IMG/VR virus record: IMGVR_UViG_3300045972_000714
Location: 1-28,638 of that record
From: a virus
Direction: 5' to 3' (one strand)
DNA length: 28,638 bases
Under the pieces are notes generated by a model. That model had not been told where the DNA came from. It did not search any database and worked only from the letters and a program-made list of their open reading frames with translations. Positions 18,682 to 27,338 of this stretch are shown here, one piece after another (within the stretch, counting starts at the first letter, position 1; each line of letters begins with the position of its first letter). The position numbers and the translations under genes were made by a program.

Positions 18682-19211
18682 GCCATGTCCTCCCCGAAGT
18701 GCCGGCCGAGGATCCGCAGGCTGGCGCCCCGGTCGGCGGCGTTGAAGCCCAGGTAGGGCCGGGCCGCGATGGTGACCTTGCGGCCCCGCCCGGCCTTGCC
18801 TCCCAGTTGATGAATGCGGGCGTAGACGAGGTTGGAGCCGACCTCCACCGACTGGCCGTCGGCGCGGAAGGTGACCGACTTAAACAGCCGGCCGCTGTCC
18901 AGCAGGGCCTTGGCCCCGTCGACGCGGCGTTCGGCCCGCGCCGTCAGCTTGACGTACTCCACACCCTTGACCTTGCCGCGCTCCGCGATCTTGCGACCCC
19001 GGCCGGCCCGGCCCAGCAGGGTGGGGAAGCTCAGCGGAGCCCATGCCTTGCCGTCGGGATCCCGCTGGTCTTCGAAGCGGTGCTGGGTCCCGGTCAGCAT
19101 CATGCCGCCGATCTCCGTGAAGGCCGGCCGCAGATTGCGGGCCTTCAGCACCAGGCCGTCCAGCCGGTGGCGCAGCTCGTCGTCGCGGACCTCAATGGAG
19201 ATGCCGGCCAT
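18678..19211 (-). CDS. G: virion morphogenesis protein (Mu gpG/P2 gpS-like)
   Basis: This 177-residue protein belongs to the phage virion morphogenesis family (Mu gpG, P2 gpS), which acts in head and tail completion. Clear family signs are LRPAFTEIGGMMLTGTQHRFEDQRDPDGKAWAPLS, a conserved block in this family, then LLDSGRLFKSVTF, VEVGSNLVYARIHQLGGKAG and the end ARPYLGFN. In Mu, gene G lies between F and the protease; here it lies between gp36 and gp37. It starts one base after the gp36 stop with AAAGG upstream. Confidence 0.93.
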   Translation of the reverse strand: MAGISIEVRDDELRHRLDGLVLKARNLRPAFTEIGGMMLTGTQHRFEDQRDPDGKAWAPLSFPTLLGRAGRGRKIAERGKVKGVEYVKLTARAERRVDGAKALLDSGRLFKSVTFRADGQSVEVGSNLVYARIHQLGGKAGRGRKVTIAARPYLGFNAADRGASLRILGRHFGEDMA

Positions 19212-19937: not shown

Positions 19938-20840
19938 TCAGTCGAGCCAGGGGGTGGTGAGCACCTTGGCCGAGTTGCAGTAGGGATTGTCCGCCCCGTT
20001 GGCCAACCGCTGGACGGTAAGGCACTCGAAGGCGGCTTTCTCCAGCACGTTGGGCACCACCAGCAGGTCGCCCGTGATGTTCAGCGGCAGGCCGTTGTCG
20101 CCCCGGAAGCCCTGGAGCGTCGTGCGGACCTTGGCGTAGGCGTCCAGGGTCAGCGGCTCGCGCGAGGCCACGGCCAGCTGCCACAGGCCGACACCGGCGG
20201 CCGAACGCCCATCCACGCCGTAGACGAAGACACCATCGTCGAACACCTTGGGGTCATCCAGGCGTGCCCGGCTGATCAGGTTGTAGGGGCGCCGCTTCTG
20301 ATGGATGAAGGGCTTCATCACCTTGCTGGTGCACAACAACATCCACAGCGGCCGACCGGCGTCGTTGCCGGGGAAGTAGTTGGCCACCGAACGAAGGCCG
20401 CCGTTGGGATCGGCGACGGGGTGATCGGTGTCGAAGAAGTACTGACCGTCGTAGCACACCACCTCGTCGGCCCGCCGCGCCACCTCCCACACCAGCACAT
20501 CCGGATGCATCCGGGCGTCCTGGCCCAGCTGCCCGAACACCGGCGTGTAGATGCCGAGCTTGTCGTCCTCGAAATGTTCGCGCTCGACCGAGACCGTGTT
20601 TTCGAAGGTCCGGTTCTTGATGGTGAAGCCATGCGTCTTGAGGTTCTGGTAGACGCGCGGACCGACCCATTCGCGGAACTGCGTGTTCTGCCCCAGCCAC
20701 GGATAGACTTCTTCCGCCGTGGTGGAGGTGGTGCACGAGGCGATGCGCTCATAAGTCGGCTGGGTGTTGGCCTGCCACTGCTGGAAGACGGTGTTGTAGC
20801 CGCGAAAGGCGGCGGCGAGGTTTTCGGCGTTGATGAGCAT
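19938..20840 (-). CDS. T: major capsid protein (Mu gpT-like)
   Basis: This 300-residue protein is the main head subunit of the Mu gpT family (Mu T is about 305 residues). It begins MLINAENLAAAFRGYNTVFQQW. Further family-type stretches are EEVYPWLGQNTQFREWVGPRVYQNLKTHGFTIKNRTFENTVSV, VCYDGQYFFDTDHPV and PYNLISRARLDDPKVFDDG, and it ends with the phrase DNPYCNSAKVLTTPWLD. The ATG at 20840 has AAGGAAG about 9 nt upstream; earlier in-frame codons lie in the preceding gene. Confidence 0.95.
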   Translation of the reverse strand: MLINAENLAAAFRGYNTVFQQWQANTQPTYERIASCTTSTTAEEVYPWLGQNTQFREWVGPRVYQNLKTHGFTIKNRTFENTVSVEREHFEDDKLGIYTPVFGQLGQDARMHPDVLVWEVARRADEVVCYDGQYFFDTDHPVADPNGGLRSVANYFPGNDAGRPLWMLLCTSKVMKPFIHQKRRPYNLISRARLDDPKVFDDGVFVYGVDGRSAAGVGLWQLAVASREPLTLDAYAKVRTTLQGFRGDNGLPLNITGDLLVVPNVLEKAAFECLTVQRLANGADNPYCNSAKVLTTPWLD

Positions 20841-20853
20841 GGGGCTGGCTTCC

Positions 20854-21261
20854 TTAAACGATTTCGACCCAGACGCCCCGGCCGTCCACGCCCATGACGC
20901 GGCCGGCGGCGGACCGGGTGCCGCCGCCATCGGTCAGGGCGACGGTCTGGTCATCGACGATGTGGACGGTGCGGCCGATGTGGACGGCCGTGACGGCATC
21001 CGCCGCGCCGGCGCTGGCGAAGCTGAACACGCCGCGCGAGACCTTCACGGGGATCGCGCCATCGGCGCCGTCGGTGTTGTCGGCGGTGGCGTCGGCCCGG
21101 CCGGCGGCCATCAGGCCCGTGCCGGTAAAGCCGGGCCTGGCCACGCCGGCCTGGAGCACGACCAGCGCACCGGCGAAGATTTTGGCGCCCGCCGCCACCG
21201 GCCAGGTCCAGTTGCCGCCGAAGCGGGCCTGGGTGTCGCGGGGTCCCGTCAGCGCGGCCAT
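20854..21261 (-). CDS. capsid decoration/cement protein
   Basis: This 135-residue protein lies between the scaffold/protease and the major capsid protein, where long-tailed phages keep the head decoration gene. The N-terminus TWPVAAGAKIFAGALVVLQAGVA and the beta-rich pattern that follows (IPVKVSRGVFSFASAGAADAVTAVHIGRTVHIVDDQTVAL, RVMGVDGRGVWVEIV) are typical of the DUF2190-like cement proteins. I chose MAALTGPRD at 21261: GGAGGGG lies about 9 nt upstream and the protease stops 2 nt before it. Confidence 0.82.
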   Translation of the reverse strand: MAALTGPRDTQARFGGNWTWPVAAGAKIFAGALVVLQAGVARPGFTGTGLMAAGRADATADNTDGADGAIPVKVSRGVFSFASAGAADAVTAVHIGRTVHIVDDQTVALTDGGGTRSAAGRVMGVDGRGVWVEIV

Positions 21262-21263
21262 GT

Positions 21264-21854
21264 TCAGGCCCCTCCCACGGATGTCTTGGCGAAAGCGTCC
21301 GGCGCCAGCCCGAGCTGGGCGCACACCGCCAGATCGGCCGGGCTCAGCGTGGCGTGGGCGGTCGCGGGCGGCTTGTCGGCCGCGCTGGAGGCGCCCGGCG
21401 CGACGATGACCGGGGCCGCCTTGCGCCACAGCTCGAAGCCGGCGGGATCCTTGGCGGCGTAGGCCAGCGCCCAGTCTTTCATGGCCGGGCTGGCCTTCCC
21501 CTCGGCCATAGCGGCGACGACGGCCTGTTCGGCGGTGCCGGCGGCGATCCGGGTCTTGACCTGGGCCAGTTCGGTGGTGACGGCGGTGAACTGGGCCATC
21601 GGCACGAAGTGAGCCGGATCGGGCTCGCTGGCGCCGGTGGCCAGGCCGCTATTACTCAAACCTTGGGCGTGGGCGGCGATCTGGTCGGCGGTGGCGGTTC
21701 CGTCCAGCTTCAGGCTGGCGGCGATCTTCGCCAGATCGGCCTTGTGGGTGGCGGCCACCGCCGTCATGCCCTGGGCATGGGCGATCACGGTGTCGGCCGT
21801 CGCGGCTTCGGCCATGCCGAAGATGGCGATCAGCCGTTTCAGGAACTCGTCCAT
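21264..21854 (-). CDS. Z: internally started scaffold protein (Mu gpZ-like)
   Basis: An ATG at 21854 in the protease frame (residue 165, MDEFLKRLIAIFGM) has GGAGGG about 4 nt upstream, at 21858-21863. It would give a 196-residue Ala-rich helical protein matching the C-terminal half of the protease-scaffold fusion. In Mu and many other phages the scaffold is made separately by such an in-frame internal start so that it is in excess over the protease. The position just after the NNPNLELTA protease core and a Gly-rich joint fits this. Confidence 0.78.
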   Translation of the reverse strand: MDEFLKRLIAIFGMAEAATADTVIAHAQGMTAVAATHKADLAKIAASLKLDGTATADQIAAHAQGLSNSGLATGASEPDPAHFVPMAQFTAVTTELAQVKTRIAAGTAEQAVVAAMAEGKASPAMKDWALAYAAKDPAGFELWRKAAPVIVAPGASSAADKPPATAHATLSPADLAVCAQLGLAPDAFAKTSVGGA

Positions 21855-22346
21855 AGACCCTCCGTTGGGCGCCGCTGCCGCGACGGCCGTCAGTTCGAGA
21901 TTGGGGTTGTTGACCAGGCCGGCATGCTCCAGCCGCAGCACCGCGCCGGTCTTGGCGTCAAAGCGGAACACCGGCGACAGGAAGCGCCACTCCCTGGCGC
22001 AGACGGCCAGGGCGCCCCGTTCGGTCCACTCCACCCGCCCCCAGATGCCGTCGGCCCGGGCGTCCATGCCGACGATCCAGCCGGAGGCCGGGGCCGTTGT
22101 GCCCATCTCGTGCTTCTTGAGGAGCTGGTGGTCATAGTCGATAGGAAGCGGCCGGCCTTCGGCCGCGAAAGCGGCGACCACCGCCGCCGGGTCGGCCAGG
22201 GTGTAGGGGCCGCGTCCGTCGCGACCGCGAAACGTGCCGGCGGGAATGAGATGGACCCATTCCGGCGGAGTGTCGGGCAGCGCGGTCGAGTGGGAGGCGA
22301 GGAGCGTCGTCATGGCGCCATCTGGCACCGTTGACGCGCGCGCCAT
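21264..22346 (-). CDS. I: head maturation protease with C-terminal scaffold (Mu gpI-like)
   Basis: This 360-residue protein has the Mu gp32-type prohead protease in residues about 25-160: EWVHLIPAGTFRGRDGRGPY, PLPIDYDHQ at 67-73, GWIVGMDARADGIWGRVEWT, EWRFLSPVFRFD and NNPNLELTAV. Residues 165-360 are Ala-rich and helical, as in scaffold proteins, and end in ALVVCAQLGLAPDAF-like sequence. In Mu the scaffold Z is made from an in-frame start inside the protease gene, and a start with a strong ribosome binding site is present here at 21854. The first ATG (22346) sits 2 nt from a hairpin; M12 is an alternative. Confidence 0.93.
   Translation of the reverse strand: MARASTVPDGAMTTLLASHSTALPDTPPEWVHLIPAGTFRGRDGRGPYTLADPAAVVAAFAAEGRPLPIDYDHQLLKKHEMGTTAPASGWIVGMDARADGIWGRVEWTERGALAVCAREWRFLSPVFRFDAKTGAVLRLEHAGLVNNPNLELTAVAAAAPNGGSMDEFLKRLIAIFGMAEAATADTVIAHAQGMTAVAATHKADLAKIAASLKLDGTATADQIAAHAQGLSNSGLATGASEPDPAHFVPMAQFTAVTTELAQVKTRIAAGTAEQAVVAAMAEGKASPAMKDWALAYAAKDPAGFELWRKAAPVIVAPGASSAADKPPATAHATLSPADLAVCAQLGLAPDAFAKTSVGGA
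21858..21863 (-). promoter_or_regulatory. ribosome binding site for the internal scaffold start
   Basis: GGAGGG on the minus strand inside the protease gene, followed 4 nt later by ATG at 21854. A near-perfect Shine-Dalgarno at this spacing within a coding region is unlikely by chance and supports separate production of the scaffold. Confidence 0.75.
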
Positions 22347-22348
22347 CA

Positions 22349-22366
22349 GCCCGACGGAGGTCGGGC
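22349..22366 (-). promoter_or_regulatory. 18-nt perfect hairpin next to the protease start
   Basis: On the minus strand GCCCGAC, loop CTCC, GTCGGGC form a 7-bp stem that ends 2 nt before the first ATG of the protease (22346). No Shine-Dalgarno is present in front of that ATG. The stem could limit ribosome entry, or the palindrome could bind a protein. It shares the CCGAC-N4-GTCGG core with the hairpin at 9634-9651. The rest of 22367-22500 shows no convincing gene. Confidence 0.4.
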
Positions 22367-22509
22367 CGGGCGGAGCGGGGATGAGCGTGAACGGGCGGGA
22401 GCATAGAGCATCCGGCCCCCGTGGTCACCTCGATCGCGCGGCCCGGTGCCGGGATGCCCCTGGCGGCTCCCAGGTCGCTTTAATTTTGTCTTTAAAAAAT
22501 TCGCCGGGG

Positions 22510-22677
22510 GCTGGGTGGCCCAGCGGCCCGGGCCGCCTCTCCGCGCATTGAAACGCGACGGCGGAAAGCCCATAGTGAAGGGGTGGCCGCGTGACAACCG
22601 GGTAAATCGCACGTCCGGTTGGGCGGGGGCGCAAGCCCCGGCTCTTACGAGGAAAGTGGCGTACCTCCTCGCGGCCA
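22510..22677 (+). ncRNA. structured RNA candidate, HEARO/OMEGA-RNA-like
   Basis: Read on the plus strand this stretch pairs almost throughout. Stem A: 22510-22515 with 22519-22524. Stem B: 22530-22533 with 22568-22571, continuing as 22534-22537 with 22560-22563 across a GAAA bulge and 22542-22545 with 22554-22557. Stem C: 22584-22591 with 22670-22677, eight perfect pairs that enclose three hairpins, 22595-22601/22615-22621, 22626-22630/22635-22639 with a GCAA tetraloop, and 22649-22652/22664-22667. The GTGAAGGGGTGG stretch before stem C and the overall layout recall stand-alone HEARO RNAs, now known as guide RNAs of IsrB/IscB nucleases; that match is from memory. No nuclease gene is nearby. 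A degenerate group II intron end (a CGCACGTCCGGTT stretch resembles domain V) is the alternative. It lies opposite to the late transcript, just after the gpF stop. Confidence 0.5.
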
Positions 22678-22678
22678 T

Positions 22679-23977
22679 TCAAACCTTTCCCTCGACGACT
22701 TCGTACCGGGCGACGGCCAGATCGGCCGGCTGGACGAGGCCGGCCGTGCGCACCGTGTTGGTGATCGCCGTCACCCGCTCCCCGCCCATGCGCGCCTTGT
22801 CCTTGAAATCCACCCGCACCACCACCTTGCCGGTTCCGCCGTCGGTTGGGTTGAAGACATAGAGCAACGCCGGGTCCTGGCGGTCGTAGAGCACGGCGGC
22901 CGGATGGGCGACGATCGACGGCAGGCGCCGCACGTCCTCCGCGCCGATCGGCGCCGACTTGGCGGACCGCAGCAGGTGCAGGATATCCCGGTCGGCGATG
23001 GTGACCACGCCCGAGGCCGGCACCCGGCCCGCCCGGGCCAGATGGTCCAGCACCGGCCGGCTGAGCACGCCGATGGGGTAGCGGTCGCCCACCGCACGCC
23101 CGGCCATCGCCCCGTCCACCCAGCGTTCGAAATCGCGCACCAGGGCCGGCAGCACCGCCCTGGCGCTTTCGGCCTGGGCCGATGCCGCCAGTTCGGGCGG
23201 CGCGTCGATCAGGCCGGCGTTGAACACCCGGGCCATGTGCTCGTTGAAGGGCGTTTGACCGACGGGATAGCCAAAGGCCGGATCAACCCCGAAGGGCACC
23301 TCCGACACCTGGCCGGTCCGGGGGTTTTGGTACAGGGTGGTGGCGGGCTGGCCGTCGGGCGGGTCCGGCCAGTCATCCGCCACCGCGTGGCCGTAACGGT
23401 CCAGGTCATCCTGGCCGAGCTGCTGGAGCGAGCACCGGCACCGCCAGCCGCAGGGCGGCGTGTGGGAGGCCCAGGCCGGATGACCCATCGGCAGCACCGT
23501 GCCGTGCCAGCGCCGGTGCTCGTCCCGGGTGCGGCCGTCCATGATGGCGACGTAGCGCAGAAACGGGCGGTGTTCGCGGTTGGCCTCGAACTTCGCCCAA
23601 TGCCCGGCGGCATAGGCCGTGCGCATGTTGACATCGAAGATGGTGCGCAGCCGGCGCGGCGTTCCCAGCTCGACCTTGCGGGTTTCGCCGGTCTTGGGGT
23701 CCGTCGCCAGTTGCCAGCCCGTCCAGTTGTGGGCCTTGAGCTGGGGCAGGATGGCTTTCTTCCAGTCCTGAAAGGACATCCCTTCGGCCAGGGCCTTTTC
23801 CAGCGAGCCGTGGATGTCTTTCAGCAACTGGACCTGCATGGCCTTGGCGACGGTGAAGGCCGTGGCGTGCTGCTCCTGCCAGACATCCTTGTAGGAATAG
23901 CCCGTCAGCAGGTTGAAGCCCTTGGCCCGGAAAAAGGCCAGGGCTTCGTCAAAGGGCAGGCCGCCGGGGGTGGTCAT
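22679..23977 (-). CDS. F: minor head protein gpF with extra C-terminal domain
   Basis: This 432-residue protein is the Mu gpF-type head morphogenesis protein, a minor capsid component placed next to the portal. The first 200 residues hold the family core: ALAFFRAKGFNLLTGYSYKDVW at the start, IFDVNMRTAYAAGHWAKFEAN, GRTRDEHRRWHG at 148-159 and PPCGWRCRC at 174-182. Residues about 303-432 form a separate domain (LSRPVLDHLARAG, RLPSIVAHPAAVLYD, LLYVFNPTDGGTGKVVVRVDFK, ERVTAITNTVRTAG) resembling the PBECR-type nuclease-fold modules attached to phage head proteins. The start overlaps the portal stop (ATGA). Confidence 0.93.
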   Translation of the reverse strand: MTTPGGLPFDEALAFFRAKGFNLLTGYSYKDVWQEQHATAFTVAKAMQVQLLKDIHGSLEKALAEGMSFQDWKKAILPQLKAHNWTGWQLATDPKTGETRKVELGTPRRLRTIFDVNMRTAYAAGHWAKFEANREHRPFLRYVAIMDGRTRDEHRRWHGTVLPMGHPAWASHTPPCGWRCRCSLQQLGQDDLDRYGHAVADDWPDPPDGQPATTLYQNPRTGQVSEVPFGVDPAFGYPVGQTPFNEHMARVFNAGLIDAPPELAASAQAESARAVLPALVRDFERWVDGAMAGRAVGDRYPIGVLSRPVLDHLARAGRVPASGVVTIADRDILHLLRSAKSAPIGAEDVRRLPSIVAHPAAVLYDRQDPALLYVFNPTDGGTGKVVVRVDFKDKARMGGERVTAITNTVRTAGLVQPADLAVARYEVVEGKV

Positions 23978-25704
23978 CGGGTCTTATCGCCGCCACCGCC
24001 GCCGCTACCACCGCCATCGCCGCCACTCAGGCCGGCGCCGGCCGTTCCGGCCACATGGGCGAAGAAGCCGGCGCGGGTCAGGGCGCCTTGAAGCCGCGCG
24101 CTGTCCATGGCCCCGATCAGCCCGACCAGACGTTCCTTCAACTCGTCGGGCGTGGCGGCCTTCTCGACCGCGTCGGAAATGGGATCCATCAGCGGTGCGA
24201 CCAGGGGTTCCCACCTGTCACCGCCCAGCAAGGCGCCCAGGAAAGCATCCACGGCGTCATGGTCGCCGTCCGTGCGGGCGGCGTGGGCAGCCTCATCCTC
24301 TTCAAGATCCTCTTCGGGCGCATCGTCGGCGTCCGGCTCGCCTTCATCGCCGCCCGGTCCGGCCGGGCCGGGCTTACCGGGGCCGGTCTTCGGGGCCGTC
24401 GCTGCGGCGGCCAGCAGATCCTCGCCGTCCTCCGGATCCGGGATGCCCAGTTTCGAGCGCACGAAACCCTGTCCGACCTTGCCCCCCAGCCGCACCACGC
24501 GGTCAACGGCCAGGGTGAACGTATCGGGGTTGACCACCTCGGACTGGCCAAGGCGAATGCGCGGGTAGCGCTCCTGCGGCCCCATGTTCAGGTCGATCGC
24601 GGGGCGCACCAGGTCGCGGTTCAATGTGCCCGCGATCTGTCTGGCGTCGGACATCTGGATGTCCGTCCGCACGTCGTTGTGTTCCCGGCCCACGGCATGA
24701 CCACCGGCGATGGCGTCGGTGGTGGCCGTCTGCCCCAGCACCGCCTTCGAGACCTGCTGGTCCAGGAAGCTGGCCAGCTGCTGAAATGCCTCGCCACCGC
24801 CGCCCTTGCCTTCGATCCCCCGGATGAACTCCACATCCATGGTCCGGGGGATGATGGCGGCGGCGTCGGCGCTGATATTGCGGACGGCCTTCAGCAGCAC
24901 CGCCTTGTCGGCCGGGGTGGCATTGGCGTCGTACTTGCCCAGCCGGAACGGTTGGCCGTACACCGCGACGAACGACACCCAGTCCTTCAGGTCCCAGTTC
25001 TTGAACAGGTAGGTCCATGCCGCCGCCCGCGCCAGGCCGGCGCGGATCGGCAGGCCAGATTTGGTTTTGGGCTTGTGGGTGATGAACTTGAAGGGCGGCA
25101 GCGCCACGGTCCCGGGCTGCAACGATCCGTCATCGGCCGGAGCGGCGCCCGTCTCGCCCGGGCCGCCGCGAAGCCGCAAGGTCCGACCGTCCCGCTGGTC
25201 GAACACGAACCACCGGGGATCGCGCCATTCCAGTCGCGCCGGGGCCCACAGTTTGCCGGCCACGTCCCAGATGATCTCCACCACCGAATAGCCTTTGCCC
25301 AGGCCGTCCAGCAGATCCACCAGCTCGTCCTGCAGCTCGTCGCGCTGAAGGATGTCGTTGATCAGGCCAGCGGCGCGCTGTTCATCCTTGGACGGCCCGG
25401 CCGGCTCCACCGTGACCTCCAGCTGCGCCACCGCCAGCTTGCGGGTTTGCAGCACCGAACGGTAATGAAGGTCCTTCTCCTCCATATCTTCGGCCAATTC
25501 CAGGAAGCGGGCGGTGTCGCCCCGTTCGGCGTCCAGAAGGATCTCGGCCAGCGTCCAGGGGGTCAGGCCGACCGACGGGTGTTCGGACCAGATGGGCCGC
25601 AGGCCGGCGATGGTCGGCGTGGCGATCTCTTCGGTCAGATCCTCGCGCCGGGGGGGTGCCACCTTCATGGGGCGTCCCAGGTGGTCGACAAGCTTGGGGG
25701 GCAT
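23974..25704 (-). CDS. portal protein (Mu gp29-like, DUF935)
   Basis: This 576-residue protein is the DUF935 portal, the ring at the head vertex through which DNA enters and leaves. Family stretches are PSVGLTPWTLAEILLDAERGD, FLELAEDMEEKDLHYRSVLQTRKLAV, LLDGLGKGYSVVEIIWD, GLARAAAWTYLFKNWDLKDWVSFVAVYGQPFRLGKYD and QQVSKAVLGQTATTDA. Residues about 452-472 are strongly acidic, and the last 20 residues are a Gly/Ser-rich tail; both are likely flexible. The start overlaps the terminase stop by one base (TGATG). Confidence 0.95.
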   Translation of the reverse strand: MPPKLVDHLGRPMKVAPPRREDLTEEIATPTIAGLRPIWSEHPSVGLTPWTLAEILLDAERGDTARFLELAEDMEEKDLHYRSVLQTRKLAVAQLEVTVEPAGPSKDEQRAAGLINDILQRDELQDELVDLLDGLGKGYSVVEIIWDVAGKLWAPARLEWRDPRWFVFDQRDGRTLRLRGGPGETGAAPADDGSLQPGTVALPPFKFITHKPKTKSGLPIRAGLARAAAWTYLFKNWDLKDWVSFVAVYGQPFRLGKYDANATPADKAVLLKAVRNISADAAAIIPRTMDVEFIRGIEGKGGGGEAFQQLASFLDQQVSKAVLGQTATTDAIAGGHAVGREHNDVRTDIQMSDARQIAGTLNRDLVRPAIDLNMGPQERYPRIRLGQSEVVNPDTFTLAVDRVVRLGGKVGQGFVRSKLGIPDPEDGEDLLAAAATAPKTGPGKPGPAGPGGDEGEPDADDAPEEDLEEDEAAHAARTDGDHDAVDAFLGALLGGDRWEPLVAPLMDPISDAVEKAATPDELKERLVGLIGAMDSARLQGALTRAGFFAHVAGTAGAGLSGGDGGGSGGGGGDKTR

Positions 25705-27338
25705 CAGAAGGCTCCCTGTTTGAACCGGCCGCGGTCGCGTTCTTCCTCGGCCAGGAGGGCGTCGGGGGTGTCGGGGAGGCGGCCGGGTTCGGCGCGCTGG
25801 CGCGGCACGCCTTCGTAGTCGTAGGAAACCGGCTCCTGGCTGGCGGCGAAGTCGGCCAGCACGGCGGCAACGCCGGCGTCGCCGTGCCGGCCGCCGCCGT
25901 CGGCGCCCTTGGTGCGGGCCGGTGGGATCAGCGGCACGCCACGGATCACCTCAAAGGCGGTGACATCGGTCAGCACGTCGCGGTCAAGCGGCAGGTCGAA
26001 GTCTTCCGAACCCAGGTGGGCCTTGAATGGCGGCACATGCGCGGCATACCAGGGCTGGGACAACTGGATCTTGTGGATGCAGGCCCCGTAGCGCTGCCAC
26101 GTCACCTCGGCCAGATAGGAGCCGGAGCCGCCGGCGTCCATGGCGCCGCCCCACAGCCGGGGCAGCCGGTCGACGACGAACCACAGGATCTGGCGTTGCT
26201 GGGTGTGGGGGGTGTTGCGCAGCTCGGCCACCAGGCGGGTGCGGCGCCGTGTCAGCGCATCGATCTGCAAGGCCCAGATCACCGTCAGGTCGCAGACCCG
26301 GCCGAAGTCGACGCCGAAGGTGCTGGGCATGGTGGGCAGCCCGCACAGCACCGGCAGCAGGGCGTCCCGGCACCAGGCTTCCGCCGCCGCGTCGCGAACA
26401 TGGTCGGGCTGAAGGGCGAAGCCGTCGTCACAACTCCAGCGGCACACCGGAATGCCGGGCGCCGCCCGGGCCTGGGCCAGGGCCAGCGGAATGTACTTGC
26501 CGCCACTGCGGCGCGGGATGCACAGCAGCTCCTCGTCGGCGCCGTCGCCATAGATGGCGAAGATCTCCGCCCGCCACGCGGTTTCCGCCTCCGGTGACCA
26601 GGGCCGGCCGGTGACCAGACAGACGCGGCGGTACAGGCCGTCGGCCAGCGCGTCGTCGATGGTGATCTTCAGCAGCGTGCCCGGCCGGGTGCCCTGGCGG
26701 ATCTCTTCGCACAGCCCGTTAAAGGCGTTTTCAACGCCATTATGCGAGCTGATCACCAGCACCTTGCCGCCCCAGATCAACAGGGCCAGCGCCGCTTTCA
26801 GCAGCTCCGGCAAGTCATCGACGAAGGCGGCCTCGTCGATGATGACGCAGCCCTGGCGACCGCGAAGACTGCGGGGCCGGGATGACAGGGCGACGATCTC
26901 AAAGCCCGAGGCGAAAGAGATGCGGAAGGCCAGGATCTCCCGATCGTCGCCGTCGGGGAACAGGACTTCGTCGACGGCGGCGGCGGCCATGTTGAAGGCT
27001 TTGGCCCAGGCGCCGGCGGTGTCGATGAACTCCCTGGCCATATCCAGGGAAAAGCCGATGTAGAGCGCGTCCATGCCACCGGCGGCCTTTTCGGCCGCCG
27101 CCGTCAGCACGGCGTCGGCCGCCACGCCCCAGGTGGCGCCGATGCGCCGGCTTTTCTCCACCACGGTCAGGGCGTTGGTGGCGGTGGCGGCCAGGATCCG
27201 CTGCTGGTAGGGCAACAGGACGGCGGGAAGCCGGTCGGAACCGGTGGCGCCAGCGGCCGCGACGGCGCCCAGCACCCGGGCTTCGCGGGCCGCCCGGGCC
27301 GCCCGGGGCGACAACGGGCTCACACCTGGCCGGCTCAC
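25704..27338 (-). CDS. terminase large subunit (Mu gp28-like)
   Basis: This 544-residue protein is the DNA packaging motor. The ATPase half shows a Walker A-like EKSRRIGATWG at 61-71, Walker B VIIDEAA with the acidic pair D168-E169, and a coupling motif VLVISSHNG at 193-201. The nuclease half has FGVDFGR with D344, AMDAGGSGSYLAE with D401 and RHGDAG with D487, the expected three acidic positions for the RNase H-like fold. Mu-type terminases package by headful after transposition. The start overlaps the DUF3486 stop by 4 nt. Confidence 0.95.
   Translation of the reverse strand: MSRPGVSPLSPRAARAAREARVLGAVAAAGATGSDRLPAVLLPYQQRILAATATNALTVVEKSRRIGATWGVAADAVLTAAAEKAAGGMDALYIGFSLDMAREFIDTAGAWAKAFNMAAAAVDEVLFPDGDDREILAFRISFASGFEIVALSSRPRSLRGRQGCVIIDEAAFVDDLPELLKAALALLIWGGKVLVISSHNGVENAFNGLCEEIRQGTRPGTLLKITIDDALADGLYRRVCLVTGRPWSPEAETAWRAEIFAIYGDGADEELLCIPRRSGGKYIPLALAQARAAPGIPVCRWSCDDGFALQPDHVRDAAAEAWCRDALLPVLCGLPTMPSTFGVDFGRVCDLTVIWALQIDALTRRRTRLVAELRNTPHTQQRQILWFVVDRLPRLWGGAMDAGGSGSYLAEVTWQRYGACIHKIQLSQPWYAAHVPPFKAHLGSEDFDLPLDRDVLTDVTAFEVIRGVPLIPPARTKGADGGGRHGDAGVAAVLADFAASQEPVSYDYEGVPRQRAEPGRLPDTPDALLAEEERDRGRFKQGAF

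What the first reader, a model, noticed from the sequence alone, without database searches (positions are those of the whole stretch)
22349..22678. Structured RNA, possibly a stand-alone HEARO/OMEGA guide RNA, inside a prophage late operon
The only gene-free stretch over 300 nt in an otherwise packed operon folds on the plus strand into five stems, including an 8-bp closing stem around three hairpins and a GCAA tetraloop. Such density of perfect pairing is not expected by chance, and the minus-strand reading frames there give Arg/Pro-rich non-protein-like sequences. The layout recalls HEARO RNAs, the guide RNAs of IsrB/IscB nucleases, which often occur without the nuclease gene. If correct, the 5' flank, including an AT-rich stretch at 22479-22501, would supply the guide. 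An OMEGA-type RNA antisense to phage head genes could serve transposon homing, phage-phage exclusion or regulation. I could not find an NTGA-type site directly at the right end, which weakens the assignment.
Basis: partly seen in the sequence, partly recalled or inferred. Interest (0 to 1): 0.78.

Follow-up and report, generated by a model that had tools for sequence, protein, structure and literature searches.

The report
Probable RNA antidote to phage toxin
Next to the gene for a phage head protein that ends in a predicted RNA-cutting toxin, this phage carries, on the opposite strand and behind its own promoter, a four-armed RNA that follows this toxin domain from phage to phage and is missing where the toxin has lost its catalytic residues, so it is probably the RNA antidote that protects the phage's host.

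Summary
It has a 9-bp closing stem, three hairpins and the GCAA loop. It is not HEARO or a group II intron. Related sequences show it is a conserved RNA (23 of 28 pairs covary over 25 sequences) with its own sigma70-like promoter (22548-22576). It lies antisense to, and abuts the stop codon of, a head gene (MuF, 22679-23977) whose C-terminal domain belongs to the predicted PBECR/MuF-C ribonucleases.

The RNA follows that domain, not the phage. It sits beside MuF fusions, a portal-2H fusion and a polymorphic-toxin-like protein that shares only this domain. Of 19 viral loci found by the protein domain alone, 16 have it (11 distinct RNAs). Two of the other three carry tRNA-like RNAs in the same place. 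In six isolated Mu-like phages, RNA presence matches the active site: B3 and AFS-2018a intact, RNA; Mu, D108, JBD67, Ps60 His lost, none. Orphan and tandem RNA copies also occur.

Best reading: an RNA antidote, type III-like, to a virion-injected RNase, possibly a tRNA-like decoy. No activity was tested. I found no description in the papers searched.

The parts
22583..22678 (+). Antidote-type RNA (type A): closing stem 22583-22591/22670-22678; hairpin 1 22596-22601/22615-22620 with conserved loop GTAAATCGCACGT; hairpin 2 22621-22644 with GCAA loop 22631-22634; hairpin 3 22649-22652/22664-22667 with conserved loop AAAGTGGCGTA
   Evidence: Covariance model R1 built from 5 sequences, R2 from 25; 23 of 28 pairs covary, score 0.582 against 0.153 shuffled. 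Window scores 95.1 bits, E 7.8e-20; it is a seed member of R1. GU:AC = 37:10 gives + strand.
22548..22576 (+). Sigma70-like promoter TTGAAA-N17-CATAGT; predicted start at or next to the first base of the closing stem
   Evidence: Best site in the 100 nt upstream, 0 of 200 shuffles as good; same placement in 27 of 33 related RNAs, about 4 expected.
22679..23977 (-). MuF minor head protein with C-terminal PBECR/MuF-C predicted RNase domain (the presumed toxin)
   Evidence: PF04233 E 3e-20; MuF_C weak in this protein (E 0.15), E 6.3e-6 for the best member of the aligned family, PBECR2 E 4.9e-4; His, Arg, Lys and C-terminal Arg-Thr conserved.
22682..23167 (-). C-terminal PBECR-like domain, about residues 271-432 of the MuF protein
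   Evidence: Only part shared with the 768-aa non-MuF protein next to the RNA in G116. AlphaFold pLDDT 92.7, pTM 0.87; best PDB matches BrnT Z 5.7 and 7vd7 toxin Z 5.3.

Best explanation
The locus is a toxin/RNA-antidote cassette. The MuF head protein carries a C-terminal PBECR (BECR-fold) endoribonuclease that is packaged and injected with the phage DNA. The + strand RNA is made from its own promoter, so it can be expressed in the lysogen while the late operon is silent. It folds into a four-way cloverleaf, binds the RNase and blocks it, protecting the lysogen and the cell that builds the toxin-bearing virions, and presumably making the lysogen immune to related incoming phages. I think it occupies the enzyme as a substrate decoy. 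In other subfamilies of the same domain the RNA in this place is openly tRNA-like (canonical T-arm), which suggests the toxin attacks tRNA or a tRNA-shaped RNA. Shown here: a conserved structured RNA, its strand, its promoter-like element, its linkage to the domain, and the match between RNA presence and intact catalytic residues. Inferred: RNase activity, injection, binding, inhibition, decoy mechanism.
For: (1) The RNA follows the domain. Of 19 viral loci found by the protein alone, 16 have the type A RNA antisense and abutting or slightly overlapping the toxin stop (11 distinct RNAs). In 385 Alphaproteobacteria, the two non-centre genomes with a close domain (G116, G277) are two of the three with the RNA. 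New RNA hits in G722 and G822 also lie next to the domain. (2) The N-terminal half changes while domain and RNA stay: MuF, portal-2H, another head protein, and a 768-aa polymorphic-toxin-like protein sharing only the C-terminal domain. MuF proteins without the domain (L007, L010) have no RNA. (3) RNA presence matches catalytic integrity in six isolates: B3 (LHVLRDAK; RNA E 7.7e-10) and AFS-2018a (LHALRDSK; tRNA-like RNA) against Mu, D108, JBD67, Ps60 (His lost; next gene overlaps the stop). (4) Own promoter. (5) Covariation. (6) Orphan or arrayed RNAs without toxin, and tandem copies. (7) tRNA-like RNAs in the same place beside G350, G664, L071/L072 and AFS-2018a domains. (8) PBECR is a predicted phage RNase, inactive in Mu (PMC5512222); fold resembles BrnT.
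Against: No expression, binding or toxicity data. The fold resembles RNase toxins only at modest Z (5-6). The type A RNA lacks a T-loop, so tRNA mimicry rests on other subfamilies and a possible loop-loop contact. A few domain loci (L043, L080) have only a doubtful RNA. No terminator was seen at the RNA 3' end, so processing or read-through into the MuF antisense strand is unexplained.
Confidence: 0.72

Rival explanations
1. The promoter makes a cis-acting antisense transcript that represses the late head genes or the toxin mRNA in the lysogen (type I-like or transcriptional interference); the structure only stabilises the transcript.
For: The RNA points into the MuF gene on the opposite strand, abuts its stop and has no visible terminator.
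Against: Structure, junction and two loops are conserved rather than complementarity to the mRNA; orphan RNAs exist without the gene; the RNA is absent where the gene is present but the domain is dead.
Confidence: 0.12
2. The RNA is a cofactor, activator or cargo of the RNase (for example packaged with it in the head), not an inhibitor.
For: Obligate pairing with catalytically intact domains is also expected of a cofactor.
Against: Orphan copies and arrays without any toxin are expected for immunity, not for a cofactor; own promoter apart from the late operon.
Confidence: 0.09
3. The element is a DNA recombination or cassette-exchange site acting as folded single strands, like attC, which explains why domain and element move together.
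For: Swaps of C-terminal domains with the element, and arrays in G410 next to a RAYT-like gene.
Against: Promoter placed 4-12 nt upstream in 27 of 33, GU:AC bias 37:10, absence when the domain is inactive although the gene is present.
Confidence: 0.04
4. A HEARO/OMEGA guide RNA or a group II intron remnant.
For: Gross shape; 14.4-bit group II match.
Against: Below threshold, no HEARO match, no IscB/IsrB gene seen in the neighbourhoods examined, different conserved linkage.
Confidence: 0.01

Closest known systems
Type III toxin-antitoxin systems (ToxIN, CptIN, TenpIN)
   Same: Predicted endoribonuclease toxin paired with a structured, sometimes tandem RNA proposed to bind and inhibit it.
   Different: Toxin of BECR/PBECR type fused to a virion protein rather than a free ToxN-fold protein; RNA downstream, on the opposite strand, with its own promoter; four-way cloverleaf rather than the ToxI pseudoknot; no activity shown.
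MuF polymorphic toxins (Jamet et al. 2017, PMC5576092)
   Same: Temperate-phage MuF protein with an exchangeable C-terminal domain; Proteobacterial MuF C-terminal extensions with no recognised immunity partner.
   Different: Their immunity partners are proposed to be small proteins encoded downstream; here the partner would be an RNA.
PBECR / MuF-C domains (Iyer et al. 2017, PMC5512222; Pfam PF18819, PF18810)
   Same: The C-terminal domain belongs here by sequence and predicted fold.
   Different: An associated RNA was not found mentioned in the passages of that paper that were read.
tRNA and tRNA-like structures
   Same: Cloverleaf of closing stem plus three arms; in sister subfamilies a canonical 5-bp T-stem with a TTCRANT-type 7-nt loop.
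   Different: 9-12 bp closing stem, variable arm in the anticodon-arm position; not called by ARAGORN or Rfam; type A lacks the T-loop.

Membership tests
HEARO / OMEGA RNA (RF02033) | Match to the Rfam covariance model | tested here: not met
   No match at gathering score or at E up to 10
HEARO / OMEGA RNA (RF02033) | IscB/IsrB gene or remnant nearby or in relatives | tested here: inconclusive
   Homologue neighbourhoods show PBECR-domain genes, no IscB/IsrB seen; no dedicated IscB/IsrB search was run
Group II intron | Domain V/VI match | tested here: not met
   14.4 bits against a gathering score of 40, E 2.8
PBECR / MuF-C RNase domain | Sequence match to Pfam MuF_C or PBECR models | tested here: met
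   4 of 19 aligned members match MuF_C (best E 6.3e-6), 2 match PBECR2; the window domain alone does not reach E 0.01
[quoted passage not shown]
   His in LHLLRSAK and Thr in NTVRTAG of the window; nearly invariant in A8
PBECR / MuF-C RNase domain | BECR-like fold | tested here: inconclusive
   Best matches BrnT Z 5.7 and 7vd7 Z 5.3, next 2.4; Foldseek gives nothing below E 0.001
Type III toxin-antitoxin system | Structured RNA genetically linked to the toxin | tested here: met
   16 of 19 viral loci with type A RNA; orphan RNAs exist
Type III toxin-antitoxin system | Toxin of the ToxN/AbiQ family | not tested
   No direct comparison with ToxN made; the domain matches PBECR families instead
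Type III toxin-antitoxin system | RNA neutralises the toxin by direct binding | not testable with these tools
   Needs co-expression and binding assays
Polymorphic toxin / immunity pair | Same C-terminal toxin on different N-terminal delivery parts, together with the immunity element | tested here: met
   MuF, portal-2H, other head protein and 768-aa protein all followed by the RNA
tRNA | Recognised as tRNA by ARAGORN or Rfam | tested here: not met
   Window has no Rfam match; tRNA-like relatives not called

The most novel reading that the evidence does not exclude
RNA-based immunity in polymorphic-toxin and phage-effector warfare: a large class of virion-injected PBECR ribonucleases is neutralised not by immunity proteins but by cloverleaf, tRNA-mimicking RNAs carried behind the toxin on the opposite strand, which bacteria can also keep as orphans and arrays to resist phage-delivered toxins.
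Probability: 0.45. Interest if true: 0.93.

Novelty: new variant of a known kind. Interest (0 to 1): 0.85.

Why it matters
Jamet et al. (PMC5576092) found that Proteobacterial MuF proteins often have C-terminal extensions of unknown role and could not say whether they are toxins. A dedicated RNA that is present only with intact catalytic residues suggests these domains are active and that their missing immunity partner is an RNA. This would widen RNA antitoxins to a second RNase fold and a new delivery route, and tRNA-like versions point to the target. Pseudomonas phage B3 is an isolated phage in which this can be tested directly.

Tried and rejected
HEARO and group II intron: Rfam scans negative or sub-threshold. 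A small protein in the gap: the 110-aa ORF has no Pfam match, and the same DNA shows pair covariation across relatives. Close MuF relatives of the window in viral contigs by the whole protein: none. BLASTN in phages gave only noise, but one plasmid (Rhizobium lusitanum) gave the first homologue. Loop-loop pairing CGC/GCG between hairpins 1 and 3 is present in 27 of 28 RNAs with a fourth pair varying C-G, A-U, G-C; a few rows of that table are regex artefacts and the compensatory cases are only two, so it stays a suggestion. Foldseek against PDB found nothing significant. Viral scans with the diverged domain types gave no new loci. PADLOC: no match. Paper searches found no report of an RNA linked to MuF/PBECR; bioRxiv and subscription papers were not searched.

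Full report
What is there. The window is a Mu-like phage contig with its head genes on the minus strand: large terminase candidate 25704-27338 (by position; no Pfam match), portal 23974-25704 (PF06074), MuF 22679-23977 (PF04233), protease/scaffold 21264-22346 (PF10123) and major head protein 19938-20930 (PF10124). The described cloverleaf is present on the + strand, but only its last 96 nt (22583-22678) form the conserved element. Energy z-scores are modest, so the case rests on comparison.

Finding homologues. BLASTN of the gap against plasmids gave one hit (E 1e-7), in a Mu-like prophage on a Rhizobium lusitanum plasmid, at the same place after MuF. Pattern scans added Rhizobium paknamense, Agitococcus lubricus (a gammaproteobacterium) and a metagenomic contig. 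A covariance model (R1) from these five found further copies in Alpha- and Gammaproteobacteria. In 25 aligned RNAs (seed members included), 94.3% of pair cells are standard pairs, 23 of 28 pairs change on both sides, and the covariation score is 0.582 against 0.153 in shuffles and at most 0.114 with slid partners. That alignment was fitted to the model, but the five-sequence MAFFT alignment used to build it already gave 0.668 against 0.206. G-U pairs outnumber A-C mismatches 37 to 10, so the folded strand is the + strand, opposite to the head genes.

Own promoter. In 27 of 33 RNAs the best sigma70-like site of the 100 upstream bases has its -10 box ending 4-12 nt before the closing stem (about 4 expected; the weights of the matrix are from general knowledge). 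In the window it is TTGAAA-N17-CATAGT at 22548-22576. The RNA therefore probably starts at the foot of its closing stem and is transcribed independently of the late operon.

What it is linked to. In genome G116 two tandem RNAs sit, in the same orientation and place, next to a 768-aa protein that is not MuF and shares only residues 271-428 of the window protein (79.9 bits). MuF proteins of RNA-less phages (L007, L010) align only over the N-terminal part. So the partner is the C-terminal domain. Searching viral contigs with that domain alone gave 19 loci; 16 have the type A RNA antisense and abutting or slightly overlapping the domain's stop codon. Several are near-duplicates; 11 RNAs are distinct. 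Diverged domains on a different head protein (G186) and on a portal-2H protein (G193) have weaker RNA matches (E 0.0013 and 0.0038) at exactly the same place and orientation. In the Alphaproteobacterial sample, leaving out the centre genome, the RNA is in 3 genomes and the close domain in 2 of these (chance by simple counting about 4e-5). Two genomes later found by the RNA model (G722, G822) have the domain next to it.

What the domain is. Four aligned members match Pfam MuF_C (best E 6.3e-6) and two match PBECR2. Iyer et al. [quoted passage not shown] The window domain keeps these residues. The AlphaFold model (pLDDT 92.7, pTM 0.87) has as its two best PDB matches the ribonuclease toxin BrnT (Z 5.7) and a Salmonella toxin (Z 5.3), well above the rest (2.4), though such Z values are not proof.

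Natural controls. Among isolated phages with this domain, Pseudomonas phage B3 keeps the catalytic motif and has the RNA (E 7.7e-10, NC_006548 about 18968-19059, minus strand), whereas JBD67 and Ps60 of the same genus (LVPLVKA in place of LHVLRDA) have no RNA and the next gene overlaps the stop. Mu and D108 have also lost the His and likewise have no gap. Pasteurella phage AFS-2018a keeps the motif and has a tRNA-like RNA there.

tRNA-like sisters. In diverged subfamilies the RNA in the same place has a canonical T-arm: the G350 paralogues (GTCAG-TTCGAGT-CTGAC in four read in full, the fifth masked upstream), G664 (GTGGG-TTCAAGT-CCCAC), L071/L072, and AFS-2018a. G350 and G664 also share a D-loop-like GATGGGNAA. 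ARAGORN and Rfam call none of those tested tRNA. In both types the arm in the anticodon position is the variable one, while the D- and T-arm positions are conserved. In type A the loops of hairpins 1 and 3 carry CGC and GCG and may kiss, which would resemble the tRNA elbow; the evidence for this is thin. A further type (B; L055, L077) resembles type A with an insertion in hairpin 3 and is recognised by eye only.

Orphans. The RNA occurs without the domain in G312, in the metagenomic contig L003/L038 (where a protein of the same N-terminal family as in G116 has a different C-terminus) and as a partial array at contig ends in G410. RNA without toxin but rarely intact toxin without RNA is the pattern expected of immunity; the incomplete assembly of G410 is a caveat.

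Interpretation. The cassette works like a type III toxin-antitoxin pair and like a polymorphic toxin with its immunity, with the toxin built into the virion and the antidote an RNA on the opposite strand. Inhibition, injection and the tRNA-decoy step are inferred. It is not filed as a type III member, because neutralisation could not be tested and ToxN relatedness was not tested.

Limits.

Noticed in passing
L036:11828-12138 and L037:1-347 (G410 contigs C53 and C3): Partial array of at least four RNA copies with differing loops, interspersed with GGTGCGCGGTGCGCACCCTACG repeats and next to a RAYT-like transposase ORF, with no toxin domain found in the genome: perhaps a chromosomal antidote array.
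   Followed up: partly
NC_006548 (Pseudomonas phage B3) 18980-19078: The annotated 33-aa hypothetical protein B3ORF34 lies over the antisense RNA and is probably not a gene.
   Followed up: partly
L045, L048, L049, L050, L051 (genome G350): Five stand-alone PBECR-like genes, each with a tRNA-like RNA (T-arm seen in all) antisense at its stop codon.
   Followed up: partly
L072:4270-4357: Rfam sRNA-Xcc1 match (59 bits, E 1.9e-8) on the minus strand of a viral contig, about 1.3 kb downstream of the domain gene.
   Followed up: no
L014:1530-1610: Long perfect palindrome (GTGGAGCGCTCTTTCGGG...CCCGAAAGAGCGCTCCAC) just upstream of the RNA promoter in Rhizobium paknamense; possibly a terminator.
   Followed up: no
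L038:1855-5111 and L033:7683-10313: Two related polymorphic-toxin-like loci with the same N-terminal family and different C-termini; one keeps the RNA as an orphan behind another toxin.
   Followed up: partly
window 22313-22346: By alignment with relatives the protease/scaffold gene probably starts at the ATG at 22313, not 22346, which makes the gene-free gap longer.
   Followed up: no
L039 and L014 (G001 contig C2, 286958-287058 and 329376-329471): Two Mu-like prophages 42 kb apart in one Rhizobium genome, each with its own domain and RNA with different loop sequence.
   Followed up: no
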